Assembly: GCA_017446045.1 (NCBI GenBank)
Contig: JAFSRP010000034.1
Span: forward strand, 1 to 64,000
Source: Lachnospiraceae bacterium
GTDB lineage: Bacteria; Bacillota; Clostridia; Lachnospirales; Lachnospiraceae
Direction: 5' to 3'
Length of the DNA: 64,000 bases
Shown one piece after another: positions 38,745 to 53,384 of the stretch. Within the stretch, counting starts at the first letter, position 1; each line of letters begins with the position of its first letter. The notes beneath the pieces were generated by a model. It saw only the letters and a list, made by a program, of their open reading frames with translations, had not been told where the DNA came from and made no database searches. The position numbers were made by a program, and so were the translations under genes.

Positions 38745-40868
38745 TCACCTCTCCCCGAACTTGCGGATGCGAATGCCGATGCCGGCTTTAAAAGCCACCA
38801 TCAGATAGTCTTCACAAACGATGACTTTGTCGATGAAGCGCTTGACCATATCATTGTTGTAATGGCGCACGGGGCCTAATTGGGAAATGTTGTCGGTGCG
38901 GGCGTAGAAATCCTCCACCTCGGTACAAGCAGCCGGATCCCTGGAGACACTGCCTCGGGCTGCAGTCCCGTTTTCCGCAGACTGTTCCGAACTCTCCGTA
39001 TTCCAGGACCTTTCATTCCTTTCTTTCCCGCTTCCTCCGCGGGATCCCGGTCCGCTCATCGGATATCCCGATTTTCCCGTGATCAGGCAAAAGTCATTTT
39101 TCTCATCTCTCAGGTCATCACGGTTCCAGTTGATTGCATCTACCAGGCGAAGTGCCGACTGGATCTGCAGTTCCTGCATCGCAAGATTCGCCTTGCGCTC
39201 ACTTTCTTCATCGATCCTGGCTTCGAGCTCATCGAGTTCTTCCTGCAGTCGGTCAGCCTGTTCAGACAGCCGGGCAAAACGCTCTTCCGAAACCGTTCCG
39301 CCGGCATCCTTTTGAGGATCGCTTGCGGCATCAGCGCCCGAATCCCCGGCAGCCTTGCCCTCGATCCCATCAATGTTCCCGTCGATTCCTTCAAACATTC
39401 CCGTATACATGCCTTCCGGTGTGTAATTTCCCGATATCGTCCTGTTTTCTTTTGCTGTCAGCAGCGCCTCTTCGGCTTCCACCTGTTCTTTTAATTCCAG
39501 ATACTGCGCTTCCAGCGTATCTTTTTCATCGTCCAGTTCCCGCAGGCGTCTCCTGCTTTCCTCTAAAGGGCCCCAGCGGGTCCTTTCCTGCATGCGGATC
39601 AGCTCGTCGCGGTATAGCGGCAGACGGTTAAAAGCCGCGACGACAGCATTTTTCACATCCTGCTCCTTCACTGCTGGTCCCATGCAGGCATTTCGTTTCG
39701 ATACTCGGGTACGGCAGCGCCAGACTGCGTCGCGTATATCCGTGGTGCCCAGGTCCTCGGACCAGGTATCTGAGGAGGTATGGGAAGACAGCTCCTCTGT
39801 CAAATCAGATTTGGGACCCTCTGGAGCATAACGCCGGTACGTGGCGCCGCAGAGCCCGCAAACCAGCTTGCCATTCAGAGACATATCCTTTGTCGTACGT
39901 TCCTGTCTCCCGCCAATCACCCTGTCCCGCTCGGTCTGCGCCAGCTTTGCCTGCGTCATCATGTAGATCTCCCTCGGAATGATGGGCTCGTGGGCATTTT
40001 CCACATAATAGCGCGGCATCGTACCGGTATTGCGCACCTTGCGCTTGGTCAGGAAATCCGCTGTGTAGGACTTTTGCAGCAGCAGATCTCCCATATATTT
40101 TTCGTTCTTCAGCATGGATGTGATCGTGCTGTGGTACCATTTACCCTTGCCAGACGGGGCGCGTACGCCCTCTTCCTCCAGGCTGAACACGATCTCACCG
40201 AGCGACATTCCCTCGAGATAATCCCGGAATATCCGCCGCACGATCTCCGCTTCCTCAGGCACGATCTTTAAGTCTCCGCCCCGTTCCTTGGTGTAACCCA
40301 GGAACATCTTGTGATTGAGCATCGGCCGGCCCTTCTGAAAGTTATAGTGGATGCCCATCCGGACGTTCTGTGAGATCGACTGGCTTTCCTGCTGCGCCAG
40401 CGACGCCATGATCGTCACGAGCAGTTCGCCGCCCATACCGAGCGTATTGATATTTTCCTTCTCAAAAAGGACCGGGATCTCCAGGTCGCGGAGCTTGCGG
40501 ATATACTGCAGGCAGTCGAGGGTGTTGCGCGCGAACCTGCTTATGGATTTCGTAATGACCATATCGATCCTGTGGGCCTCACAGTCCGCGATCATACGGT
40601 TGAAATTCTCGCGGCCCGCGGTCGACGTGCCGCTGATACCCTCATCCGCATAGATACCGGCGAGGACCCATTCATGCTTACTGCTGATCAGCTCCGTATA
40701 ATGGCTCACCTGCGCTTCATAGCTCGATTCCTGTTCTTCCAGCTCCGTAGAGACCCGGCAGTATGCCGCCACCCGGAGCTTCGGGGTCTTATTTTTCGTA
40801 TCATGCCGCGCCGCCTTCTTCTGCTTTGCGGGGATGACTTTTACTGATGATTTAGCTTGTTTCTCCAT
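38745..40868 (-). CDS. Large serine recombinase (third gene of module)
   Basis: 707 residues. Resolvase-type catalytic domain: RVAAYCRVSTELEEQESSYE (about residues 31-50) with the nucleophilic Ser in RVST, GTSTAGRENFNRM, and ITKSISRFARNTLDCL. A recombinase domain (GMSLGEIVFSLEEEGV) follows, then a zinc-ribbon region (LVCGLCGATYRR and later Cys pairs) and a long coiled coil near 430-580. Such enzymes integrate or excise DNA at short att sites without a strand-exchange cofactor. Its ATG overlaps the stop of the short recombinase gene by 28 bases, with GAAGGTGAG ahead of it. Confidence 0.93.
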   Translation of the reverse strand: MEKQAKSSVKVIPAKQKKAARHDTKNKTPKLRVAAYCRVSTELEEQESSYEAQVSHYTELISSKHEWVLAGIYADEGISGTSTAGRENFNRMIADCEAHRIDMVITKSISRFARNTLDCLQYIRKLRDLEIPVLFEKENINTLGMGGELLVTIMASLAQQESQSISQNVRMGIHYNFQKGRPMLNHKMFLGYTKERGGDLKIVPEEAEIVRRIFRDYLEGMSLGEIVFSLEEEGVRAPSGKGKWYHSTITSMLKNEKYMGDLLLQKSYTADFLTKRKVRNTGTMPRYYVENAHEPIIPREIYMMTQAKLAQTERDRVIGGRQERTTKDMSLNGKLVCGLCGATYRRYAPEGPKSDLTEELSSHTSSDTWSEDLGTTDIRDAVWRCRTRVSKRNACMGPAVKEQDVKNAVVAAFNRLPLYRDELIRMQERTRWGPLEESRRRLRELDDEKDTLEAQYLELKEQVEAEEALLTAKENRTISGNYTPEGMYTGMFEGIDGNIDGIEGKAAGDSGADAASDPQKDAGGTVSEERFARLSEQADRLQEELDELEARIDEESERKANLAMQELQIQSALRLVDAINWNRDDLRDEKNDFCLITGKSGYPMSGPGSRGGSGKERNERSWNTESSEQSAENGTAARGSVSRDPAACTEVEDFYARTDNISQLGPVRHYNNDMVKRFIDKVIVCEDYLMVAFKAGIGIRIRKFGER

Positions 40869-41320
40869 ATTCTCACCTTCTCTGTATCTTTCTCGCTCAT
40901 CACGCTCCGGCCGTCAGCCGCAGGGATGATCAGGCTGTAAATATAGGATGCGATCTCTCCTGCCGTCATGCCGCTCCCGTTCCTTCGGGGAGGCTTCATG
41001 CGGAAAGTCTGCCGGACAGGCTGTCCTCTCGCCGTTGCCCTCGATCCGGGATGCGTTCTTCGTTCTATTTCCAACGCGACCAGGTCAAACGTCTCTTTTT
41101 CTGTCAGCGCGGGATAGTATCCGTCCCCCAGGTAGACCGGGTTTTTCAGTAAATGCCGCAGGCTCGTGGCAGAGCGTGGGATCCCTGCCGCCTGATTTGC
41201 TTCTTTGATCGATAGACCGCTCAGGTAAAGATCTATGAATATCCGGATCTTTTCTGCCTCGTCCGGTACAGGCTCCGCCCGACCGTCCCTGATGCGGTAT
41301 CCGTATGCTATATGTGCCAT
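40841..41320 (-). CDS. Short recombinase-domain protein without catalytic domain
   Basis: 159 residues. Only the recombinase DNA-binding region is present: GYRIRDGRAEPVPDEAEKIR, LSIKEANQAAGIPRS and LLKNPVYLGDGYYP. The resolvase catalytic domain is absent, yet the frame is intact and has AAAGGAG eight bases before ATG, so it is probably a genuine accessory protein, perhaps directing site choice of the two large recombinases. Confidence 0.8.
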   Translation of the reverse strand: MAHIAYGYRIRDGRAEPVPDEAEKIRIFIDLYLSGLSIKEANQAAGIPRSATSLRHLLKNPVYLGDGYYPALTEKETFDLVALEIERRTHPGSRATARGQPVRQTFRMKPPRRNGSGMTAGEIASYIYSLIIPAADGRSVMSEKDTEKVRIWRNKLNHQ

Positions 41321-41446
41321 ATGTTTCGCTCCTTTGATAGATTCACCCTCCCGGAAGAACGAAACATGATGATACTGCGTATATTTGTTGTCTGATCTGC
41401 AGATGTTCTCTGCAATGCCGAGTGTTATCTGTACAGTTTACCGCGC

Positions 41447-43249
41447 TCACTCCAGCGTCTCTGTAAGGCAAAAACCGCAGCTGAGCCTGAATACCAGTTC
41501 CTTTTCTGTACGGACCGTGATCTGTTCCACGATTCCGGGCAGCAATTCTTCGGCAGCCGGGAGGAGATCCATGTCCGATTGCTGCGCGTCAACAGTTCCC
41601 TGTTGTCCAGCGTTCTCCTCTCCCAGTTTCCGCCAGTCTTCCAGCTGCTGCCGAAAGGCACGTACAGCGCCGATGCCCGCAGATCCCGCTTCCAGGCGCA
41701 GCTTTCGCAGGGTCTCGCGGATGAAAGCCTCCTCGGCTTCTATCTCCATGATCCGGCGCCCGTATCCATGCTGGTCACCGCGCCCCCGTCCGAGGACTTC
41801 CCGAAGATGAAGGCGTTCTTTTGTGCATTTAAGTCCCTGCTTTTCCAGTTCATGTATCCGGTCGATGTTGCTGCGCTCACCGTCCCGCTGTAATGCCGCT
41901 GCATAGGTCCCGAGCACGGCGTCCGGGGCAAACGCCAGTTTGTTCATCATCGTCATGAAAGCATTCATCACATCCTGTTCCGGGATCCGTTTCATCCCGC
42001 AGATCTCCCTGCTTTCGAGATGCCTGAGGCAAGCCCAATGGTGCCGTTTCCCGCCTGCCGTCTTCTGGCTCACACGGCGCATCGGCGCGCCGCAGCATCC
42101 GCAGACCATAAGGCCGGAAAGAACATACCGCTTCAGTCCTCCCCGCCTGCCCTCATCGCGTTCATCCTGATATTCTTCATATTCCGGTTCCTCCTGAGAT
42201 CCGGCATCGAGTCCAAACTCCGTAAGGTCCCGCACCCGGACTCCCTTTTCCACACCGCGCTGCCGGCTCGATAATACAGCATTCATAAAATGCTTCCTGT
42301 CAATGATGGGCTCGTGGTGTTCTTCGACATAGTACATTGGTTTTTCACCATGGTTCGGCCGGCATCGGAAATACCGGTCGTGCCAGGTCTTTTGCATCAG
42401 AGCGTCTCCGGTATAGAGTACATTGGTGATGATCCCCTTCACCATGAAGCTCGTCCAGCGCCCCGGCGTGCCGTCGCGCCGCACAGTTCCCGTCGGGATC
42501 CCGCGCCGGTTCAGCTCCTTTGCGATCCGGTAAGCTCCCTCTCCGCGAAGTACCATTCCATAGATTTCCCGTATGATCCCGGCAGTATCCGGGTCAACGA
42601 CGAATGTTCCATCCTCCAGCCGGTACCCGTAGGGCGCCCGGGAGTAACGGAAGGAACCGTCTTGAAAACGCTTCTCGATCGCCCAGGTCAGGTTGGCGGA
42701 AATGGAATGCGACTCCGCTTCCGCCATGGATGCGAATAACGTCAGCATCAGCTCCGATTCTGCTGTGCCGGTATAGATATTTTCTTTTTCAAACAGGATC
42801 TGTACGCCCATTGCATTGAGCTTACGTACCAGTTCCAGGCAGTCCGCAGTGTTCCTTGAAAACCGGCTGATAGACTTGGTAAGGATCAGGTCAATACGGC
42901 CTTTCGACGAGTCTTCCATCAACCGCGCCAGCTCCGGCCGCGCTTCCTGGCGGGTACCTGTCACACCGGTCTCCCAATACACGCCCGCCGGGATCCACTC
43001 CGGGCGTGAAGCGATATACGTCTCATAATGCTCCCGCTGATTCTCGATGGAGCTTTCCTGCTCTGTCATGTTGGTCGAGACTCGGCAGTACGCTGCCACA
43101 CGCCTGCGCTGATATTCGGGCGCAAGGGTCCGCGGCTTGCGAAACGCCGGGATCACCTCGATCCGGTTATGGACCGTGTCACGGGTGGAATCACCCATGG
43201 TCTGCCTGTTCCAAGTCGAATACCCGGCTTTCTTTTTATCGTGATCCAC
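41447..43249 (-). CDS. Large serine recombinase (first gene of module)
   Basis: About 600 residues from a GTG at 43249. Catalytic domain with RRVAAYCRVSTNMTEQESS and LILTKSISRFSRNTADCLE, recombinase domain (APYGYRLEDGTFVVDPD; YRIAKELNRRGIPTG), zinc ribbon CGCCGAPMRR with later Cys residues, and a C-terminal coiled coil. Start choice is uncertain: the frame opens at 43357, but its first codons lie in a terminator hairpin; AGGAGG at 43263-43268 is 13 bases before GTG 43249, somewhat long. Confidence 0.9.
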   Translation of the reverse strand: MDHDKKKAGYSTWNRQTMGDSTRDTVHNRIEVIPAFRKPRTLAPEYQRRRVAAYCRVSTNMTEQESSIENQREHYETYIASRPEWIPAGVYWETGVTGTRQEARPELARLMEDSSKGRIDLILTKSISRFSRNTADCLELVRKLNAMGVQILFEKENIYTGTAESELMLTLFASMAEAESHSISANLTWAIEKRFQDGSFRYSRAPYGYRLEDGTFVVDPDTAGIIREIYGMVLRGEGAYRIAKELNRRGIPTGTVRRDGTPGRWTSFMVKGIITNVLYTGDALMQKTWHDRYFRCRPNHGEKPMYYVEEHHEPIIDRKHFMNAVLSSRQRGVEKGVRVRDLTEFGLDAGSQEEPEYEEYQDERDEGRRGGLKRYVLSGLMVCGCCGAPMRRVSQKTAGGKRHHWACLRHLESREICGMKRIPEQDVMNAFMTMMNKLAFAPDAVLGTYAAALQRDGERSNIDRIHELEKQGLKCTKERLHLREVLGRGRGDQHGYGRRIMEIEAEEAFIRETLRKLRLEAGSAGIGAVRAFRQQLEDWRKLGEENAGQQGTVDAQQSDMDLLPAAEELLPGIVEQITVRTEKELVFRLSCGFCLTETLE

Positions 43250-43300
43250 CTTTTTGATGTCACCTCCTGCTATATTGGAGCGGACTGTATTTCCGCACCA

Positions 43301-43331
43301 AAACAAAAAGCCCCTGCATAAAAGCAGAGGC
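43301..43331 (-). terminator. Terminator/attenuator ahead of the recombinase module
   Basis: Minus-strand GCCTCTGC-TTTTAT-GCAGGGGC followed by TTTTTGTTTT, placed about 50 bases upstream of the first recombinase start. It may attenuate recombinase expression. Confidence 0.8.
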
Positions 43332-43671
43332 ACGATCAACGTATTCATTTCATTCATTCGAGAGAGTGTATTTCTATCTTAATAAAGCTTCGCCTTCCGT
43401 TCAAGACGGAATATCTGCCAAACTCTTAAGGACGAAATTGCGCACTATTGACAGAAATTATAATATCATACTATGACACTCTGAAAATGAAATATCCTGC
43501 CCGTACTGATCACACATCGGGCAGGACATTTCAATGATCTTCAGATGAGGAACGTCTCTTTTTCTATGGCTTTCTTGTCTTCGTTATCTCCTTTCTGCGA
43601 TGTTATTGTTTATCTTATTATAATTGTGGTTCTCTTGTTTCAGTGATCATTTTCAGCTATTGCTTCTTTTT
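43332..43671. other. Gap between recombinase module and LPQTG adhesin
   Basis: About 340 bases without a gene. Contains a small inverted repeat TTCCGT-TCAAG-ACGGAA near 43392, a TATAAT-rich stretch near 43455-43475 that may hold the recombinase promoter, and the adhesin terminator at 43488-43533. No clear attachment-site repeat found. Confidence 0.6.
43488..43533 (-). terminator. Terminator of the LPQTG adhesin gene
   Basis: GAAAT-A-TCCTGCCCG pairs with CGGGCAGGA-C-ATTTC over a 14-base loop, followed on the minus strand by a T-rich stretch. Confidence 0.7.
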
Positions 43672-46600
43672 TCAGTCATCTTCTCTGCGTCTCACGACTC
43701 CTGCGGAGAGAAGGCCTGCGCCCGCGATCAGAAGGATCGGGATCGGCCACCAGAGCTGTCCGGTCTGCGGAAGTCTGTCTGCGCCGAGGACGCCCTGCTG
43801 CGGCTCGCGGTCTGCACCGAGAACTGCGCTCTCTTCGATTTCCGGTTCACGGTCAGCACCGAGAACTGCGCTTTCAACTGCCGGTTCATTGCTTGCGACA
43901 AGGACTGCCGGGCCGGCGCTGTAGGAATAGGTTCTCTCGCTGTTATTGCTTCTTCTGCCGCTGTTGCCGCCGTTATTGGGGGCCGGAGAGGGAGTCGGAT
44001 CCTCAGTCGGGTCCTGTGCCGGAGCGGGCTCATGTACGTTGTTGATTCCGAAACCATTGCCGGCAGATCCGCTGATGGTTGCTTCATATCCTTCAACTGC
44101 TGCTTCAGCGACCGTATACTCGATCTCTTTGCCTTCCGCGTATCTGTACATGTCGCCGACGACCTTTTCCCAGTCTTCCTTACTGCTGATCTCGACAGTC
44201 TTTACGACTTCACCGTCCGCAAGGATGCTGACTTCGATGCTGTCGGGGCGGATGTTGTCTTTGTTGTTTTCATCTTCCCAGGTCTTGGAGATCGTGAACT
44301 CGATCTTCTCCGGTGCATGGGTGTTGGTGATCTCAACAGCTTTGACCAGTCCGTTTACTCTTTCGTTTTCACTCTCAAGAAGGGTCTCATTGACCTCACT
44401 GGTGTAATCTGCTACTGCAAGCTCACGGATGGAGTACTTGATCAGATTGCCGTCATCATCAAATGCCTTGAGGTTATCGAAGGTGTATTTCCAGTCGCCA
44501 TCCTTTGTCAGGGTGATCGGTGTGCCTTCTTCTTTGTCATTTGCCATAAGCTGTACCTGAATGCTCTCGGGACGCTTGCCGTCGCGGTCGTTGTCATCAT
44601 TCCAGGTCTTGTTTACACTGAACCAGGTCGCGAACTCGGCGTAGAGACTGACTGCGGACTGTACCACTCTGTCCTTGGTTGCACTGAGCTTTGCCAGTAT
44701 TCCGCCGCTTACGTTCTGATCATCTTCCAAGTCATCGATGTCCAGCTTGCCTGCGGTGCCATCAGCTGCTTCTTTGAAGGAGTCTGCAAGTGCTACCGGC
44801 TCTTCCGGGATCGAACGAAGTCTGGTAGCGGTTTCATTGTCAGAGCTCTGTGCCCCGGTATCGTCTTTCTTGACGAACCAGCCAAGGAATCTGAGGGTGT
44901 TGTTGCTGCCAAGGACCATTTCCTCGACCCACTTCTGTGCGGTCTTTTCTGCCTTGTTGTTATCGACGTCAATGTCGTCAAAAGATTCTATATTTGCATG
45001 TTCGATTTCTGCGTCTTCATTCTCTACGGTGATGACACTTCCGTTCTTTGCATCAAGATAGTTGACCGTGATGGAGGGCTGCCACCAGGCATCTACAGAC
45101 TTATTAAGAGCAGTATTCTCGTCTTTGGTGATCTCCGGAGCATCCAGCTTATCGACTGCCTCATCCCCATTGATCGGGCTTTTATCCTCTCCGTACCATC
45201 CAAGAAACTGATAATGCTCATGTTCGCTCTTGACCTCGGTACCTTTTACATCGACAGATTCAAAGCTCTTATCGACGGTCTTGGTGGTTCCAAACTCATT
45301 GAAGTTTACAGTGATCGCCGGCTGCCAGTAGGCATATATATTAACATTCTTTGTTGTGCCTTTCGGTATCTCGGCCGAGCTGTAGATATTTTCATCACCG
45401 TCATAAAACTTAACGCCGGTCTCATCATTCTGCCAGTATTCAAACTGATAATCAGACTGTGGTGTTTTAATGGATGGATCTGAGAATGTGTGCTTGTATT
45501 CAGTCACAGCATCCTTGTTGCTCCAGGATCCCGAACCGGTGGAGATATTGTCGATGTAATTGTAGTTAAGGTACCAGTTGGCAGTTGCCTTGTAGACCGG
45601 GGAGATATAAACATCTTTCCCATCGACCTGGATTGTTTGCCCACTATTCATTACAATTGATGCTTTACCATCTGAGGAGTACTTGATTTGTTTTACAGTA
45701 TCGCCATCACTTGCTGTATTCCAACAAACCGGTTCACTATCTTTCGTTGTTACGGCAAACACATTCAAAAACTTGTAAGTATATCCTAATCCACCAGCTG
45801 AATTATTGTTTCCTCCGGCATAGCTTTTGAAGCCATTGATTCCTTTGCTCTGTCCCTTCACCATATCCATTTCGGCTTCATAAGCCACTGCATGTCCGTT
45901 TTCAGCGTGTACTGCTGTCCACAGGATATTGCTGATATGGACTGTCAGATTCTCTTTTTCCGGCTCTGTGGACTGAACTGTGATCGCCGGAGCTGCCAGA
46001 GCCATTGCCATCATTCCCAAGCTGTTTGACTCAGAACCGAAATCCAGGGTTACACCGTTCTCATCCTGGCTTACACCATCAGTGGATTTAGTCCCGACTG
46101 CAAGTGCTTTTGTATTCCTGACAGGTACTTCGTTCTTCGGAGCCTCTGCTTCGCTTACTGCTGCATTTGCATTGGTTTCCTGTTCGGTGACTGTGGTTTC
46201 TGCAACTGCGGAAACTTCGTTCTTATCAGAGCCTTTCTCTTCCTGAGATTTCTTTTCGACCGGTGCTTCAGCCTTTTTTGCCGATGCTGCAGCTGCCTGC
46301 TTTTCGATCTCTACGCTTACTTCATTCTTATCAGACTCAGCCTTTACTTCCTGGACATTGGTAGTCTCAGCAGCCGGTCCGATGTTGGCGGTCAGCGCCT
46401 TTTCTGCACCGGGTGCTGCGATGATGGTGGAAAGTCCGTCCGCGGTGATCGTCACATTCTCTGCGGGTGCGGAGATAGCCGGAGCTGCCTCTGCCTTCTT
46501 CTCTGCAGGTGCTTCGCTTTTCTCGGTGTCTGCGGGAGCGGCGATCTCTTCACTGGTTTCTTCCTTTTCGGAAGCCTGCGATACGCTTACTGCTGCGTCC

Positions 46601-47142
46601 GTTTCTGAGGAAGCCTGTGCATCGTCAGCCTTCACGATCTCGACTGTGCTCTCGGCTGAGGTGCCTTTGTCTGCAGTATCGGCCGCGGGATCACTTCCTT
46701 TTTCTTCCTGAGCTGTGGCCTCTTCATGGGCTGCGCTGTTGCTGCTGTTATCTTCGGAGCTTTCAGATGCTTCTGCAGCATCAGACTTGTCGCTCGCTTC
46801 TTCTTTCTCGGAAGCTTCTGCCTTTTCTTCCTTTTCGGAAGTATCAGCCTCTTCCTTTTCGGAGCTCTCGCTCTTTTCTTCTTTCTCTTCCTTTTCGGAA
46901 CTCTCGGCCTTTTCTTCTTTCTCTTCCTTTTCGGAACTCTCGGCCTTCTCTTCCTTTTCTTCCTTTTCGGAGCTTTCTTCCTTCTCGGCCTTTTCCTCAC
47001 CGGATCCCTGCTCCTCGGTGCTCTCCAGCGTATCTGCCATGGCCGGGATCGCGGGGGTCAGGTGGACCGAAGTCATCGTCAATACCATCATGAAAACCAG
47101 AATGCGGTTCCACAGGCTCTTTCTTAAACTTCCTCTCTTCAT
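43672..47142 (-). CDS. LPQTG-anchored adhesin with charged repeat stalk, InlB-type and Cna_B domains
   Basis: 1156 residues. Signal peptide (1-36, ending PAMADT), a Glu/Lys/Ser-rich repeat stalk to about 130 with three 12-residue repeats (EKEEKEEK type), a long Ala/Glu-rich region to about 390, a globular part, three InlB/Listeria-Bacteroides-type repeats (FEYWQND; FLGWYGEDKS; FLGWFVKKDD at about 571, 649, 754), two Cna_B domains beginning NKTWNDDNDRDGKRPESI and SKTWEDENNKDNIRPDSI (about 844, 950), three VLGADR motifs and LPQTG near 1122. AGGAGG stands six bases before ATG 47142. Monocistronic, own terminator. Probable host-surface or mucin adhesin. Confidence 0.9.
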   Translation of the reverse strand: MKRGSLRKSLWNRILVFMMVLTMTSVHLTPAIPAMADTLESTEEQGSGEEKAEKEESSEKEEKEEKAESSEKEEKEEKAESSEKEEKEEKSESSEKEEADTSEKEEKAEASEKEEASDKSDAAEASESSEDNSSNSAAHEEATAQEEKGSDPAADTADKGTSAESTVEIVKADDAQASSETDAAVSVSQASEKEETSEEIAAPADTEKSEAPAEKKAEAAPAISAPAENVTITADGLSTIIAAPGAEKALTANIGPAAETTNVQEVKAESDKNEVSVEIEKQAAAASAKKAEAPVEKKSQEEKGSDKNEVSAVAETTVTEQETNANAAVSEAEAPKNEVPVRNTKALAVGTKSTDGVSQDENGVTLDFGSESNSLGMMAMALAAPAITVQSTEPEKENLTVHISNILWTAVHAENGHAVAYEAEMDMVKGQSKGINGFKSYAGGNNNSAGGLGYTYKFLNVFAVTTKDSEPVCWNTASDGDTVKQIKYSSDGKASIVMNSGQTIQVDGKDVYISPVYKATANWYLNYNYIDNISTGSGSWSNKDAVTEYKHTFSDPSIKTPQSDYQFEYWQNDETGVKFYDGDENIYSSAEIPKGTTKNVNIYAYWQPAITVNFNEFGTTKTVDKSFESVDVKGTEVKSEHEHYQFLGWYGEDKSPINGDEAVDKLDAPEITKDENTALNKSVDAWWQPSITVNYLDAKNGSVITVENEDAEIEHANIESFDDIDVDNNKAEKTAQKWVEEMVLGSNNTLRFLGWFVKKDDTGAQSSDNETATRLRSIPEEPVALADSFKEAADGTAGKLDIDDLEDDQNVSGGILAKLSATKDRVVQSAVSLYAEFATWFSVNKTWNDDNDRDGKRPESIQVQLMANDKEEGTPITLTKDGDWKYTFDNLKAFDDDGNLIKYSIRELAVADYTSEVNETLLESENERVNGLVKAVEITNTHAPEKIEFTISKTWEDENNKDNIRPDSIEVSILADGEVVKTVEISSKEDWEKVVGDMYRYAEGKEIEYTVAEAAVEGYEATISGSAGNGFGINNVHEPAPAQDPTEDPTPSPAPNNGGNSGRRSNNSERTYSYSAGPAVLVASNEPAVESAVLGADREPEIEESAVLGADREPQQGVLGADRLPQTGQLWWPIPILLIAGAGLLSAGVVRRREDD
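46861..46968 (-). repeat. Three tandem 36-bp repeats in the adhesin stalk
   Basis: Near-identical units at 46861-46896, 46897-46932 and 46933-46968, each coding 12 residues. A number divisible by three keeps the frame when copy number changes. Confidence 0.85.
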
Positions 47143-47269: not shown

Positions 47270-47310
47270 CATATCAAAACACCCCGCTTTTTGGAAGCGG
47301 GGTGTTGCTT
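47270..47310 (-). terminator. Terminator of the opp operon
   Basis: Perfect 12-base stem AACACCCCGCTT (47278-47289) / AAGCGGGGTGTT (47295-47306), with TTTTG following on the minus strand. Confidence 0.92.
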
Positions 47311-47350: not shown

Positions 47351-49174
47351 TCACTTGCGGCCGTACTGCGGGTCGTTGTTGCCGGAAGTGGTAGTGAACA
47401 TCTCAAGCATGTTGATCGGGTCGTTGAAGTCAGCGATCCAGCCTTCACGTGCCATATCGAAGTTACCGTTCTTACGCTCCTCGAGGAAGACGTTCCAGTC
47501 CTGAACACCGATGGAAATATTGATGCCGACTGCTGCAAGGTCCTGCTGCAGGGACTCGGCGATCGCGATGTGGCCTGAGCTCTCGTTGGTCAGGTACTCG
47601 ATATCGATCGGAGTGGAGGGATCAAGCTTGCCGTCGTCGCCGAACTTGAAGCCGGCTGCCTTCAGAAGCTCTGTAGCCTCTGCGATGGTGCCGTCATAGT
47701 CCTCATTGATCGCATATGCGTCGAAGTAGCCGACAGCCGGATCATCCTTGAAGGTTCCGCCGTTGCCGTCCATCATGCCGAGCGGGATGTAGGAGGTCGC
47801 GATGACCTGGCCGGTCTGGCCGATGTTCTCAACGATGTAGTCTCTGTCGATCAGGATGTTGATCGCCTTACGCATGCAGGCTGCCTGCTCCGGGGTCTTG
47901 CCTTCGAACAGCTTGGAGTTTACGTTGAATGCGATGTAGTAAGTACCGAGCTCGTCAACAACGTAGAATTCCGGATTCTGGGACTCGATCAGTGCTGCAA
48001 CCTCGTCGGTCGGTACGGAGTCGATGAAGTCAACGCTGTCGGAGTTGTATGCGGAGTAGATCGCGGTATCATCTGCGGAAAGCATGAACTCAAGCTTCTC
48101 AAGTTTGACATTGTCGGCATCCCAGAAGTACGGGTTCTTCTCATAAGTCATGGAAGTGTCGTGGTTCCAGCCGGTGCAGACGAATGCGCCGTTGCTGACG
48201 AAGCCTGCCTCCTGGCACCATCCGCCCGGGGTGGTCTCCCAGTCTGCATAGGACTCAACAGCTTCCTTCTTGACCGGATAGAAGGTCGGAAATGCCATCA
48301 GGTCTTCCATGTATGCGCACGGAGCAGCAAGAACGAACTCAAGGGTGGTATCATCGACTGCGGTGACATTGATCTCGCCGTCATCATATCCGTCGAAACC
48401 AGAGAACATATACTCGTAGTCAGCAGCGGTCTTGGGATCTACTGCTCTCTTCCAGCTGTACTCGAAGTCAGCAGCGGTCAGGTCGGAACCGTCGGACCAC
48501 TTGAGGCCTTCCTTCAGCTTGACTGTGTAGGTCAGGCCGTCCTCGGTGACCTCATAGCTCTCAGCGCAGGCCGGAACCGGCTTGCCTTCTGCATTGTAGG
48601 TATACAGACCGGAGAAGGAGTTCGCCGCAAGGCAGGCGCCGTCAACGGAAGAGTTCAGAGCGGGATCCAGGAAATCGGGCTCGGAAGCCAGGTTCAGGCG
48701 CAGGGTGTCGGAACCGTTCTCCATCTCGGCATACATGAAGAACTTGGTCGCAAATGCATTTGCATAGACGCCCTTGACATACGGCTTGGACATGTAGAGG
48801 TCATTGTAGTAGTAGATCGGAACGACCGCATAGTTGGACATCAGGATGTCCTCTGCCTGGTGCATCAGCTCGGTACGATGCGCCATGTCGGTCTCTGCCT
48901 TGATCTGCGCGATCAGTTCATCATACTGTGCCCAGTCGCCTACCGGGTCGATGAATGCGTCGCTCAGAAGGCTTGCCGCATCGGGGATCTCCTCCTCCGC
49001 TGCTGCTGCCTCGGTCTCTGCCGGAGCCTCCGTCTCGGGGGCTGCGGTCTCTGCCGGAGCCTCGGTCTCTGCCGGAGCCGCGGTCGTTGCAGGAGCTGTG
49101 CTGGTGCCGCCGCAGGCTGCAAGCGAAGCACTTACCATTGCCACTGCAAGCACAAGTGCAAGTTGCTTTTTCAT
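47351..49174 (-). CDS. oppA: Oligopeptide-binding lipoprotein, apparently circularly permuted
   Basis: 607 residues. Lipoprotein signal with Cys21 (SLAACGG) and an Ala/Thr/Glu linker. Residues about 73-150 (YDELIAQIKAETD; LMHQAEDILM; VVPIYYYNDLY; KPYVKGVYANAF; FFMYAE) match what is normally the C-terminal end of SBP_bac_5 peptide-binding proteins. Only after this comes the normal N-terminal start, SDTLRLNLASEPDFLDPALNS (about 155). The protein ends at FTTTSGNNDPQYGRK, exactly where the usual C-terminal segment would continue. So the tail has moved to the front. Last gene of the opp operon; AGGAGG upstream of ATG 49174. Confidence 0.9.
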   Translation of the reverse strand: MKKQLALVLAVAMVSASLAACGGTSTAPATTAAPAETEAPAETAAPETEAPAETEAAAAEEEIPDAASLLSDAFIDPVGDWAQYDELIAQIKAETDMAHRTELMHQAEDILMSNYAVVPIYYYNDLYMSKPYVKGVYANAFATKFFMYAEMENGSDTLRLNLASEPDFLDPALNSSVDGACLAANSFSGLYTYNAEGKPVPACAESYEVTEDGLTYTVKLKEGLKWSDGSDLTAADFEYSWKRAVDPKTAADYEYMFSGFDGYDDGEINVTAVDDTTLEFVLAAPCAYMEDLMAFPTFYPVKKEAVESYADWETTPGGWCQEAGFVSNGAFVCTGWNHDTSMTYEKNPYFWDADNVKLEKLEFMLSADDTAIYSAYNSDSVDFIDSVPTDEVAALIESQNPEFYVVDELGTYYIAFNVNSKLFEGKTPEQAACMRKAINILIDRDYIVENIGQTGQVIATSYIPLGMMDGNGGTFKDDPAVGYFDAYAINEDYDGTIAEATELLKAAGFKFGDDGKLDPSTPIDIEYLTNESSGHIAIAESLQQDLAAVGINISIGVQDWNVFLEERKNGNFDMAREGWIADFNDPINMLEMFTTTSGNNDPQYGRK

Positions 49175-49338
49175 AGTGTAACTTTCCTCCTTTGAAAAAA
49201 CTCTTTCGGGCATCTTTCATGCCCAATTTTTAATAATCTTTATGTGATCTGCGGGTGAATCCGGCAGCTGCCTGCGCGAATGTGAGCGTTTTGCGCTGCA
49301 TATTTTACCCGCAAAAGAATAAAGCAGTTTTACCGGGT

Positions 49339-50298
49339 TTACCGGTTCCAGCACGCCACTTTGTGGCCGCCTCCGCGGTCGGTCAGCTCCGGACATGCCT
49401 CCGCGCACTTATCCGTCACATATCTGCAGCGGGTACGGAAGGGACATCCGCTCGGCATGTTCAGCGGGCTCGGGACGTTGCCCTCAAGCATGATCCGCTT
49501 CTTCTGCCGCGCGATCTTAGGATCCGGGATCGGCACCGCCGACAGCAGGGACTCGGTATACGGGTGGATCGGATGGTCCATCAGCTCATTGGCTTCCGCC
49601 GTCTCGACCATGTGACCGAGATACATGACGGCAATATTCTTGGAAATGTGCCTTACGACCAGCAGGTCATGGGCGATAAACAGGTACGCTACGCCCAGCT
49701 TTTCCTGCAGTTCCTCGAACATGTTGATGACCTGCGCCTGGATGGAAACGTCCAGCGCCGAGACCGGCTCGTCGCAGACGATGAACCTGGGGTTGACGGC
49801 AAGGGCGCGGGCAATGCCGATACGCTGGCGCTGACCGCCGGAGAACTCATGGGCATATCTCGTCGCATGTTCCGCATTGAGGCCTACCAGGCTCATCAGT
49901 TCCAGGATGCGTTCGCGGCGCTCTGCGCGGCTTGCGTACAGGTGATGCACGTCCAGCGGCTCTCCGATGATGTCCTCGACCGTCATACGCGGGTTGAGCG
50001 AGGAATAGGGGTCCTGAAAGACCATCTGCATCTTGCGGCGAAGCTGGTGGATGTTGCGGGAGCTGATCTCCTCTCCTTCAAACTTCACAGTGCCGCCGGT
50101 AGGCTCATACAGGCGGAGAATGCTCCGTCCGACCGTGGTCTTGCCGCAGCCGGACTCCCCGACCAGACCCAGGGTCTCGCCCTGGTCGATCGTAAAGGAA
50201 ACATCATCAACGGCCTTCAGCGGACGTGACCCGAAAAAGCCGTCTCTTATCGGAAAATACTGTTTGAGGTGTTCAACTTCCAGCAGATGTTCAGCCAT
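49339..50298 (-). CDS. oppF: Oligopeptide ABC transporter ATPase OppF
   Basis: 319 residues. Cytosolic energy subunit with Walker [10 protein letters not shown] (about residue 45), signature [15 protein letters not shown], Walker [13 protein letters not shown], and the family C-terminal oligopeptide extension with clustered Cys ([16 protein letters not shown], four Cys including ECP-type ACPE) that may bind an iron-sulfur cluster or metal. Its start overlaps the end of oppD by 8 bases. Confidence 0.95.
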
Positions 50299-51364
50299 TC
50301 GATGTCACCTCCTCATTTCCTTCAGCAGCCTCAGGGGCACCGTTATTATCCGCAGTCTTTGTACTATTCTGCGCCGCGCCTGCCTGCATGTCCCGGATAT
50401 TGATCCAGCATGCAGCCGCGTGGTCTTTATTGATCATGATCTCCTCGGGCACCTGCTCAAGGCAGATCTTCATCGCTTCCTTGCACCGCGGGCAGAACGC
50501 GCAGCCCTTCGGCATGTTCAGCATATTGATGGGCGTGCCCTCGATGGGCTGTAGCTTTTCCCTGGCACCGGTAACGCTCGGGATGCTGTGCAGAAGTCCC
50601 TTGGTATACTCATGCTTCGGATTGTAGAATATCTCGTCCGCGGTACCGCGCTCGCAGACGCGGCCGCCGTACATGACGATGATCTCGTCGCACATCTCTG
50701 CGATGACGCCCAGATCGTGCGTCACCATGATGATGGCCATGCCGAGCTTCTTCTGGATATCCAGCATAAGTTCGAGGATCTGGGCCTGGATGGTCACGTC
50801 CAAAGCCGTCGTGGGCTCGTCCGCGATCAGGATATCCGGCTCGCAGGCCAGCGCCATCGCGATCATGACTCTCTGGCGCATACCGCCGGAGAGTTCAAAC
50901 GGATACTGCTTCAGACGCTTCTCCGGCTCGTTGATGCCGACCAGCTCCAGCATTTCCACAGCGCGCGCCCTGGCGGCAGCACCGCGCTTATTGGTATGAA
51001 GCGTGATCGCCTCCATCAGCTGGTTGCCCACCGAAAAGACCGGGTTCAGGCTCGTCATCGGGTCCTGGAAAATGATGGAGCAGTTCCTGCCGCGGAATCC
51101 CGACATCTGCTTCTCATCCCATTTGGAAATGTCCTCGCCCTTGTAGAGGATCCTGCCGCCCGCGATCCGTCCATTCTCCGCAAGGATCTGCATCACGGAA
51201 TATGCCGTGACAGACTTTCCGGAACCGGACTCGCCGACGATGCCGAGGACCTTGTGCTCGTCCAGGTCAAAGGACACACCGTTGACTGCCTGGACCTCGC
51301 CGTTTTCTGTAGTGAATGCCGTGTGCAGATCCTGCACACTCAATAAATGTTCGTACTCTTTCAT
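50291..51364 (-). CDS. oppD: Oligopeptide ABC transporter ATPase OppD
   Basis: 357 residues. Walker [10 protein letters not shown], signature [15 protein letters not shown], Walker [13 protein letters not shown], and the C-terminal extension [15 protein letters not shown]. Pairs with OppF to form the ATPase heterodimer. An unusual hydrophilic Asn/Ala/Glu-rich tail of about 30 residues follows the last conserved motif. Starts 16 bases after oppC. Confidence 0.95.
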
Positions 51365-51379
51365 AACACTGTCCCCACC

Positions 51380-52459
51380 TTATCGTCTGAGCTTCGGATC
51401 AAAGGCGTCCCGCAGGCCGTCGCCCAGAAGATTCAGGCTCAGCACGATGAGACAGATCATGATCGATGGAAATACCAGTTTATACGGGTAGGTATTGATA
51501 CCTCCGCGGGCAGCATTGGCCAGGGAGCCCAGGGAAGGCATCGGTGCCTGCACGCCCAGTCCGATGAAGGACAGGTAGCTCTCCGTGAAGATCGCGGAGG
51601 GGATCTGCAGCGCGGTGGATACGATGATCACCGAAAGGCAGTTCGGAATAATATGCTTCCGGATGATGCGTCCCGAGGACGCGCCCGTGGACTGTGCCGC
51701 GAGGATATAGTCATTTTCCTTGATGGAAAGGATCTGGCCGCGGATCAGGCGGGCCATACCGACCCAGTACAGAAGGCCGAATACGATAAACAGCGACAGC
51801 ATGTTCGGACCCATCTTGCCGAGGAAAGAATCCTTGGGAAGCGAGATCCGGCTGCCTAGGACGACCGAGAGCAGAATGACCATCAGCATATCGGGCAGCG
51901 AATATATGACGTCCACGATACGCATCATGATCATATCGACCCTTCCGCCTATGTATCCCGAAATACTTCCATAGATCATGCCGATGATCAGGACGATGAT
52001 GCTGGCAAAGAAACCGACGGTCAGACTGACCCTGGTGCCGTAGACGACACGGATGAAATAGTCGCGGCACTGCTCATCGGTGCCGAAAATATGCGGGAAA
52101 CGCTCCCCTCCCTTGGCGATATACTGCTGCTCCATCTTGGAATACTCGAAGGGCTTTAAGTTCTTCGCGCCTTTGTCACGCTTGCCCTCAACGGAGAGGA
52201 TCTCCTCGTAGCCATAAGGCACGATGTGCGGCGCCGCCGAGATTCCGATCAGGATGAGGAGCAGCACGATGATGCTGAACATGGAAAGCTTGTTCTTGCG
52301 CAGACGGCGCATGCCGTCGCGGAAGAAGGTCGTGGACTCGCTCATGACCTCCTGCTGCGCTTTCTCCTCCTCTGTTGCCTTTTCGAACATGGAGGGATCC
52401 AGCTGCATGCTGAAGGGGCGCTTCTCCGGTTCTATGTTGGGATTGTACTGATTATCCAT
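51380..52459 (-). CDS. oppC: Oligopeptide ABC transporter permease OppC
   Basis: 359 residues. A cytosolic N-terminal stretch of about 55 residues precedes the first transmembrane helix, then a periplasmic loop with GTDEQCRDYFIRVVYGTRVSL and five further helices; the EAA-type coupling loop AAQSTGASSGRIIRKHIIPN is intact. Inner-membrane half of the channel with OppB, 13 bases after that gene. Confidence 0.94.
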   Translation of the reverse strand: MDNQYNPNIEPEKRPFSMQLDPSMFEKATEEEKAQQEVMSESTTFFRDGMRRLRKNKLSMFSIIVLLLILIGISAAPHIVPYGYEEILSVEGKRDKGAKNLKPFEYSKMEQQYIAKGGERFPHIFGTDEQCRDYFIRVVYGTRVSLTVGFFASIIVLIIGMIYGSISGYIGGRVDMIMMRIVDVIYSLPDMLMVILLSVVLGSRISLPKDSFLGKMGPNMLSLFIVFGLLYWVGMARLIRGQILSIKENDYILAAQSTGASSGRIIRKHIIPNCLSVIIVSTALQIPSAIFTESYLSFIGLGVQAPMPSLGSLANAARGGINTYPYKLVFPSIMICLIVLSLNLLGDGLRDAFDPKLRR

Positions 52460-52472
52460 AAACTACTCTCCA

Positions 52473-53384
52473 TCAATCGAATTTGATCCTCGGGTCGACC
52501 AGCTTGTACACGATGTCGCAGATCAGGGTCGCCGCGACCATCAGGACGGCAAGGAAGATCGTCGTCGCCATGATCAGTGTGTAGTCACGGTTGCCGATGG
52601 CACTGACGAACTTGCTGCCAATGCCGCCGATCGTGAAGACATGCTCGATGACCATGGAGCCCGTAATGATGTAGGCGATCTGCGGACCGGCATAGGTGAT
52701 GACCGGGATCAGGGAGTTGCGGAGCGCATGCTTGAAGATAATGTAGAACTTCTTGACGCCCTTGGCCCGCGCGGTGCGGATGTAGTCCTGGCCGAGCGCA
52801 TCCAGCATGCTGCTCTTCGCGAGCCTGGTGGTGTAAGCCATCGGGTAAGCCGCCAGAGCGAGCACCGGAAGCACGTAGTTGTTGGAATTGGCGCTCCATA
52901 CAGGCACCCACCCGAGCATGATGCAGAAGATCAGCAGCAGGAAGGTCGCCAGAATAAAACTCGGGATCGAGGTCAGGAGCGTGGTCAGGAAAATGATCAG
53001 GCGGTCCGGGAACTTGTTGCGCATCAAAGCGGCGATACACCCCAGCACCGTACCGGTCAAAAGCGCCACCGCGATGGCCATAAGTCCGAGCTTGCAGGAG
53101 ATCGGGAAGGATTCCGCGAAGATGGCGGAGATCTCACGGCCGTTCTTCAGTGAAACACCGAAGTCCCCATGGAAAATGCCTTTGAGATAGAGAAAGAACT
53201 GGGAGATCAGCGGCTTGTCCAGTCCGTAGCGCTCATTCAGCGCCTGGACCGTTGCCTCGGACAGAGCCTTCTCACGGTTGAAGGGGCCGCCGGGAACCGC
53301 GTGCATCAGAAAAAACGTAATGGCTGCGATAATAAACACTGTAAATATCGCCAGGATCACTCGTTTGATAATATACCTTGTCAT
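52473..53384 (-). CDS. oppB: Oligopeptide ABC transporter permease OppB
   Basis: 303 residues, six transmembrane helices with N-terminal MTRYIIKRVILAIFTVFII and coupling loop RTARAKGVKKFYIIFKHALRN. First gene of the operon; GAAGGTAACC precedes ATG 53384 and a consensus promoter lies 48 bases upstream. Confidence 0.95.
   Translation of the reverse strand: MTRYIIKRVILAIFTVFIIAAITFFLMHAVPGGPFNREKALSEATVQALNERYGLDKPLISQFFLYLKGIFHGDFGVSLKNGREISAIFAESFPISCKLGLMAIAVALLTGTVLGCIAALMRNKFPDRLIIFLTTLLTSIPSFILATFLLLIFCIMLGWVPVWSANSNNYVLPVLALAAYPMAYTTRLAKSSMLDALGQDYIRTARAKGVKKFYIIFKHALRNSLIPVITYAGPQIAYIITGSMVIEHVFTIGGIGSKFVSAIGNRDYTLIMATTIFLAVLMVAATLICDIVYKLVDPRIKFD

What the first reader, a model, noticed from the sequence alone, without database searches (positions are those of the whole stretch)
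47351..49174. Circularly permuted oligopeptide-binding protein OppA
The visible protein carries the usual C-terminal segment of SBP_bac_5 proteins (YDELIAQIK...LMHQAEDILM...IPIYYYNDLY-type...KPYVKG...FFMYA) at residues about 73-150, right after the lipoprotein linker. The normal mature N-terminus (LRLNLASEPDFLDPALNS) follows it, and the protein stops at SGNNDPQYGRK, where the moved segment would ordinarily continue. Everything expected is present once, in rotated order. A natural permutation of this fold inside an otherwise standard opp operon would be unusual. It could have arisen by tandem duplication of oppA with loss of both outer ends.
Basis: partly seen in the sequence, partly recalled or inferred. 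Interest (0 to 1): 0.88.

Follow-up and report, generated by a model that had tools for sequence, protein, structure and literature searches.

The report
Repeatedly permuted peptide-binding transport protein
A gut-bacterial peptide-uptake protein has its last 70 amino acids moved to its front, and related bacteria carry either the usual or the rotated order at the same gene position, which makes them a natural test of how rotated proteins evolve.

Summary
Confirmed and extended. The window's oppA (47351-49174, minus strand, 607 aa) is a natural circular permutation of an SBP_bac_5/OppA lipoprotein: residues 153-602 match B. subtilis OppA 8are_A 17-450, and residues 83-146, just after the lipoprotein linker, match 456-519. 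It ends a complete oppBCDF-A operon. It is no assembly fault: the rotated order is in 5 of 25 genus genomes, 27 of 397 family genomes and all 80 loci returned by a genome scan, two of them from named Treponema bryantii strains. The larger finding: normal and rotated OppA interleave at one operon position next to oppF. The OppA tree needs 5 changes of order (4 forced by well-supported branches) and rejects one origin; an independent OppF tree agrees. Two other break points and two fused double modules exist. Likely route: tandem duplication and fusion, then trimming at an extended loop. Peptide binding is inferred; no structure could be predicted; direction of change is unresolved.

The parts
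47351..49174 (-). permuted oppA gene, 607 aa plus stop
   Evidence: ORF and translation; Pfam SBP_bac_5 1.1e-84; phmmer to OppA/DppE
49186..49193 (-). ribosome binding site aaaggagg, 11 nt before the ATG
   Evidence: read from the sequence
49112..49174 (-). signal peptide ending in lipobox LAAC (residues 1-21)
   Evidence: sequence; C21 invariant in the 5-row alignment; lipobox recognised from general knowledge
48938..49111 (-). low-complexity Ala/Glu/Thr/Pro linker and residues up to the moved segment (residues 22-79)
   Evidence: sequence; variable length between relatives
48728..48937 (-). moved segment: the usual C-terminus of OppA, now at the front (residues 80-149)
   Evidence: residues 83-146 match 8are_A 456-519, 83-139 match 8ay0_A 452-508; conserved in 31 permuted members
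48704..48727 (-). join of the old C-terminus to the old N-terminus (EMENGSDT, residues 150-157)
   Evidence: read from the sequence; join length varies among permuted relatives, 9-13 by the counting
47354..48703 (-). body of OppA: usual mature N-terminus through SGNNDPQYGRK (residues 158-607)
   Evidence: matches 8are_A 17-450; R576, W579 and D582 align with positions 413, 416 and 419 of 1b05_A
49339..50298 (-). oppF, ATP-binding subunit
   Evidence: Pfam ABC_tran and oligo_HPY; best NCBIfam match OppF, below its cut-off
50291..51364 (-). oppD, ATP-binding subunit
   Evidence: Pfam ABC_tran and oligo_HPY; best NCBIfam match OppD, below its cut-off
51380..52459 (-). oppC, permease
   Evidence: Pfam BPD_transp_1 and OppC_N; best NCBIfam match Opp3C, below its cut-off
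52473..53384 (-). oppB, permease
   Evidence: Pfam BPD_transp_1; best NCBIfam match Opp3B, below its cut-off
47278..47306 (.). terminator-like hairpin just after oppA
   Evidence: consensus scan, 13 pairs on the + strand, 6 pairs on the - strand with a T-rich tail; not evidence of function

Best explanation
The gene encodes a secreted, lipid-anchored oligopeptide-binding protein of the SBP_bac_5 (OppA/DppE) family. Its chain is circularly permuted at a loop between '..GNNDxQFG' and 'xW..YDELI', so the last ~70 residues now follow the lipoprotein linker and the old termini are joined by a short linker. It most likely folds as an ordinary bilobed OppA and delivers peptides to its own OppBCDF permease, with the membrane tether at a different point of the fold. 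Shown: rotated order, its conservation, purifying selection, place in the opp operon. Inferred: fold, ligand, transport. Among relatives the order at this locus has changed at least four times by the combined tree, so the loop is a recurrent permutation site. The likeliest route is tandem duplication and fusion with later trimming of the outer ends (inferred).
For: Rotated alignment to solved OppA/DppE; nearly full Pfam SBP_bac_5. Permuted relatives in 5 of 25 genus genomes, 27 of 397 family genomes (26 genus codes), and all 80 returned named loci: Bacillota 68, Spirochaetota 8, Chloroflexota 4 by record title. dN/dS against L081 0.18 for the moved segment, 0.11 for the body. An OppF-like gene directly upstream of 75 of 82 arrangement-typed ORFs of named loci (5 had no room). 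Orders interleave: 5 changes, 4 forced, 0% of 200 bootstrap trees with one; AU p 5.9e-113 against the permuted rows as one side; 8.4e-6 against the 11 nested normal rows as one clade. OppF tree: 7 changes, 4 forced, AU p 6.4e-4. An orthologous oppF directly beside oppA in 19 of 21 genomes checked, both orders among them. Double modules L137 and L146; tandem pair L135; SBP gene end directly before L133's gene.
Against: No structure could be predicted, so closeness of the old termini was not measured. No C-N-C intermediate was seen. Most carriers are metagenome assemblies. The body-only tree forces 3 changes and the moved-segment tree (70 columns) only 1. The groups tested by AU were named after a first tree was seen. 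The long loop of the nested normal proteins could be ancestral, since the normal-order outgroup L161/L095 also has one, so direction is open. The OppF tree has weak inner branches and one very long row, G008.
Confidence: 0.93

Rival explanations
1. Assembly artefact: a misjoined or collapsed tandem pair of normal oppA genes.
For: The window genome is a 63-contig assembly, 78.88% complete.
Against: The same rotated reading frame with signal peptide, join and stop recurs in other assemblies at 42-88% identity, in 80 named loci including two T. bryantii strains, and intact in the single-contig genome G208. No long repeat lies in or around the gene.
Confidence: 0.01
2. Not a permutation of one gene but a fusion: the 70-residue segment came from another SBP gene and the original C-terminus was lost.
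For: Cannot be told from permutation by duplication when the donor is a recent tandem copy. For some rows the moved segment's nearest rows differ from the body's (L075).
Against: Body and moved segment often point to the same relatives (L067: both nearest L066; L057: body nearest L182, segment nearest L184, which are close on the tree). Each part is present once.
Confidence: 0.08
3. Order changed by repeated gains only: about four separate permutations from normal-order ancestors at an already extended loop, with no reversal.
For: Starred branches force 4 changes. The normal-order outgroup L161/L095 already has a long QFGK...W loop. Join lengths differ: 12 in all 6 of the L066 group, 9 in ten rows; by hand 10 in L057 and 11 in L059.
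Against: Deep branching is unresolved and the best OppA tree needs 5 changes. Ser/Ala/Pro-rich loops of many nested normal proteins resemble the lipoprotein linkers of permuted relatives, as expected of scars left by reversal.
Confidence: 0.5
4. One ancestral permutation followed by several reversals to normal order (and perhaps re-permutation) through fused tandem intermediates.
For: Normal proteins lie among permuted ones. C-N-C-N fusions exist whose trimming would restore N-C order. All 11 nested normal proteins have a G[K/R/V]-spacer-W loop.
Against: The long loop may be ancestral. No intermediate was seen in the genomes where order varies.
Confidence: 0.4

Closest known systems
OppA of Bacillus subtilis (PDB 8are) and DppE (8ay0)
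   Same: Same family over nearly the whole mature chain; opp operon in the window (organism and structure names as printed; B. subtilis recalled)
   Different: The last ~70 residues are at the front in the window protein and the old termini are joined
TpMglB-2 (Tp0684) of Treponema pallidum, 'Type Ic / Cluster Bc' binding protein (PMC4990184, passages read)
   Same: A natural circularly permuted, lipid-anchored ABC-transporter binding protein; permuted relatives reported in gut Gram-positive bacteria
   Different: Type I sugar-binding fold; there N-terminal strands moved to the C-terminus and the moved part had 13% identity to EcMglB; a different family and event
Saposin/swaposin and DNA methyltransferase permutations (PMC3320104, passages read)
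   Same: Natural permutations explained by duplication and trimming
   Different: Here both orders occupy one operon position in related genera and interleave on the tree

Membership tests
SBP_bac_5 / OppA-type binding protein | Pfam PF00496 above gathering score | tested here: met
   285.2 bits against cut-off 32.4, profile 1-367 of 368
SBP_bac_5 / OppA-type binding protein | Secreted, lipid-anchored, encoded with oppBCDF | tested here: met
   Lipobox read from the sequence; operon genes by Pfam
SBP_bac_5 / OppA-type binding protein | Usual order of the chain (C-terminal segment last) | tested here: not met
   Moved segment precedes the body; order is usual but not needed for homology, so I call it a permuted member
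SBP_bac_5 / OppA-type binding protein | NCBIfam OppA equivalog (PRK15104) at its cut-off | tested here: not met
   236.8 bits against 947; best hit but far below
SBP_bac_5 / OppA-type binding protein | Peptide binding | not testable with these tools
   Only conservation of R576/W579/D582, aligned to 1b05_A 413/416/419; their binding role is recalled
Natural circular permutation | Both parts homologous to one protein, each once, in rotated order in one frame | tested here: met
Natural circular permutation | Old termini close in space, fold kept | not testable with these tools
   Structure prediction switched off; short joins are compatible
TpMglB-2 type (Type Ic) | Type I sugar-binding fold, homologous to MglB | tested here: not met
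   No MglB-type name among the 60 of 92 PDB sequences shown; those shown are OppA/DppA/nickel/heme-type binding proteins

The most novel reading that the evidence does not exclude
Circular permutation is a reversible, recurrent character at one orthologous locus: OppA flips between normal and rotated order through fused tandem intermediates at a loop hot spot, including true reversals to normal order that leave the old lipoprotein linker as an internal scar.
Probability: 0.4. Interest if true: 0.9.

Novelty: new variant of a known kind. Interest (0 to 1): 0.78.

Why it matters
Natural circular permutations are mostly known as old events between distant proteins (general knowledge). Here proteins at the same operon position, with bodies about 69-71% identical in the closest mixed pairs, carry both orders, so steps and selective effects can be tested directly: folding, tether position, docking to the permease. 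The Pfam SBP_bac_5 model does not cover the moved segment, so a Pfam scan does not show the rotation. The rotated form is common among gut and rumen Clostridia records and also occurs in Treponema and Chloroflexota records.

Tried and rejected
Misassembly and collapsed repeat: rejected. Decayed copy of the moved segment downstream of permuted genes: 76 stretches searched, only L135 (a second gene) matched; body-type hits were in L131 and L125 (incomplete frames), L135, and upstream of L133. Separately encoded C-segment (fission-fusion): the G406 118-aa frame ends with its contig, and the G416 and G181 pieces lie within 700 bases of a contig end, so no evidence. A permuted gene on a named plasmid: Ilyobacter hit H1 was judged ordinary from its annotated coordinates (the match starts inside the gene before); its translation was not read. 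Short C-terminal tails such as RYEGWDA in L129 and L130 might be overlap remnants; too short to use. Rows dropped: the careful OppA tree used 69 of 133 modules (all 25 normal, 44 of 108 permuted, chosen to cover clades). L071 was left out because its frame is split, and named-locus ORFs under 480 aa were left out. Most unnamed permuted rows were cut to 500 aa from the moved segment, losing about 25-30 C-terminal residues. The OppF tree used 48 rows: 29 of A8 and 19 chosen from the 75 adjacent OppF of named loci, identity over 60%; G073/L185 was left out because its nearby oppF is a more distant one. Order itself was not a tree column.

Full report
OBSERVATION. The minus-strand ORF 47351-49174 encodes 607 aa. 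phmmer against the PDB matches OppA 8are_A in two blocks: query 153-602 to chain 17-450, and query 83-146 to chain 456-519. DppE 8ay0_A and OppA 1b05_A give the same rotated picture. Pfam SBP_bac_5 covers residues 198-600 with nearly its whole profile. That model ends where the moved segment would usually start, so Pfam alone does not show the rotation. The signal peptide ends in LAAC, and a low-complexity linker leads to DWAQYDELI. The protein ends at SGNNDPQYGRK. oppB, oppC, oppD and oppF precede it on the same strand, and a terminator-like hairpin follows at 47278-47306.

NOT AN ARTEFACT. In the window's genus 5 of 25 genomes carry the same order (window, G003, G004, G007, G008; identity to the window protein 88, 87, 72 and 42%). 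A profile of the join (old C-terminus to old N-terminus, alignment A3) spans from query position 1-2 to 127 or beyond, in one frame without stops, in 27 of 397 family genomes, the window's included, with 26 genus codes. An alignment of 31 permuted members is. All 80 hold an ORF of 100 aa or more with the moved segment before the body, some cut by contig ends: Bacillota 68, Spirochaetota 8, Chloroflexota 4 by record title. Most are metagenome assemblies; Treponema bryantii XBD1002 and B25 are named strains. G208, a single-contig genome, carries an intact one; G294, also single-contig, carries one whose frame is split. L080 appears to lose its frame near the 3' end. Selection is purifying: dN/dS against L081 is 0.18 (moved segment) and 0.11 (body); against the more distant L080 and L083 it is 0.06-0.15, with synonymous differences high; against L102 the body is saturated.

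CONTEXT. In 75 of 82 arrangement-typed ORFs of the named loci (81 permuted, one normal) an OppF-like gene lies directly upstream. Five have no room. L095_1647, the normal-order gene, lacks it, and L135's second copy follows a first permuted copy. Identities of those OppF-like proteins to the window's OppF run from 37 to 90%.

RECURRENT CHANGE OF ORDER. Normal-order relatives such as L077-L079 read '..NNDPQFG-VNPTSAA-PDWSKYDELI..' (L077) without a break and end shortly after FMYA or FQYA. To compare orders, I split every protein into body and moved segment by HMM, aligned the parts apart and built trees with order left out. FastTree on 133 modules (108 permuted, 25 normal) already nests 11 normal proteins among permuted ones. 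IQ-TREE on 69 rows (44 permuted, 25 normal) needs 5 changes of order; well-supported branches force 4; none of 200 bootstrap trees has one change. Holding the permuted rows together costs 194 log units (AU p 5.9e-113). Holding the 11 nested normal rows together costs 171 (p 8.4e-6). The groups were named after a first tree was seen, which these p values do not allow for. The body alone gives 6 changes (3 forced); the moved segment alone gives 7, but only 1 forced, with 70 columns.

The test that does not use oppA at all is the neighbour oppF. Of 21 genomes checked from or near the mixed clade (11 normal, 10 permuted), 19 have their best OppF match directly before oppA: 10 normal (for example G145, G259, G160, G162) and 9 permuted (for example G067, G082, G374, G290). 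The exceptions are G208, whose oppF lies downstream, and G073, whose nearby oppF is a more distant one (compared with the oppA places). The OppF tree (48 rows) needs 7 changes, 4 forced, AU p 6.4e-4. Its inner branches are weaker and one row (G008) is very long. The closest pairs of different order have bodies 69-71% identical (L057 permuted with L182 normal; L059 with L180; L066 with L181) and, for L057 and L184, moved segments 81% identical.

DIRECTION. Change counts cannot tell gains from reversals. For gains only: four changes suffice if the mixed clade is sister to the other permuted ones; join lengths differ between groups (12 in all six of the L066 group and 9 in ten other rows; by hand 10 in L057 and 11 in L059); and the normal-order outgroup L161/L095 already has a long QFGK...W loop. 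For reversals: all 11 nested normal proteins carry a spacer between G[K/R/V] and W in that loop, and many of these are Ser/Ala/Pro-rich like the lipoprotein linkers of permuted relatives. I hold both open.

OTHER BREAK POINTS. The join profile detects any rotation that fuses the old ends. Across 398 phylum genomes it found two further kinds. Type B (L169, L170; a frame with one TGA in G789; spanning hits also in G694, G623 and G598, whose frames were not read) begins near OppA position 363: L170 184-555 matches 8are_A 11-363, and 22-176 matches 363-518. It recurs over nearly the full query in 4 of 72 genomes of the class of G608, G608 included. Type C (L160, G460) begins near DppE position 290 and ends near 285, beside an oppF. 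It is a single case in a 6-kb contig. Pfam gives two separate stretches for each, the best covering the front of the profile at the back of the protein.

INTERMEDIATES. Two Chloroflexota loci, L137 (1290 aa) and L146 (1320 aa), encode two permuted modules in one lipoprotein. L135 has two permuted genes in tandem, and L133 has the end of another SBP gene directly upstream. These show that tandem copies and in-frame fusions occur. No C-N-C gene was seen among the arrangement-typed ORFs or the 131 proteins.

MECHANISM. Most likely the protein works as a usual OppA with its membrane tether moved to a loop (inference). Positions 413, 416 and 419 of 1b05_A, recalled as peptide-contact residues, align with R576, W579 and D582, which are invariant or nearly so in the 47-row alignment A7. 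The duplication-fusion-trimming route is a standard model (PMC3320104, passages read).

LITERATURE. Ten searches of the held open-access library listed no report of a permuted SBP_bac_5 protein; subscription papers are mostly not held. The closest precedent is TpMglB-2 (PMC4990184, passages read), a permuted Type I sugar-binding lipoprotein whose authors also suggested tethering as a possible reason. PMC2588589 (passages read) holds SBP_bac_5 and a permutation reference in unrelated places.

Noticed in passing
L137:5721-9590 and L146:5631-9590: Single lipoproteins of 1290 and 1320 aa made of two permuted OppA modules joined by a long Ala/Val/Glu-rich linker, in Chloroflexota assemblies.
   Followed up: partly
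L160 (G460:C58), L169 (G608), L170 (G468): SBP_bac_5 proteins permuted at two other break points, types C and B.
   Followed up: partly
window 38745-43357, minus strand: Two large serine recombinases (Resolvase, Recombinase, zinc ribbon) flank a 159-aa ORF without a Pfam match at 1e-5: perhaps a mobile element, about 4 kb from oppA.
   Followed up: no
window 43672-47142, minus strand: 1156-aa surface protein with a long Glu/Lys/Ser-rich region and two Cna_B stretches, ending in LPQTG plus a hydrophobic anchor (motif read by eye).
   Followed up: no
L071 (G294:C1:437773-441171): A permuted oppA split into frames of 396 and 204 aa in a single-contig genome: decayed gene or sequencing error.
   Followed up: no
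L148:7254-9599 and L157:7311-9596: Permuted OppA proteins preceded by more than 200 residues of Ala/Glu/Val-rich sequence: a very long tether, or in L148 possibly an over-extended frame, since no signal peptide is seen at its start.
   Followed up: no
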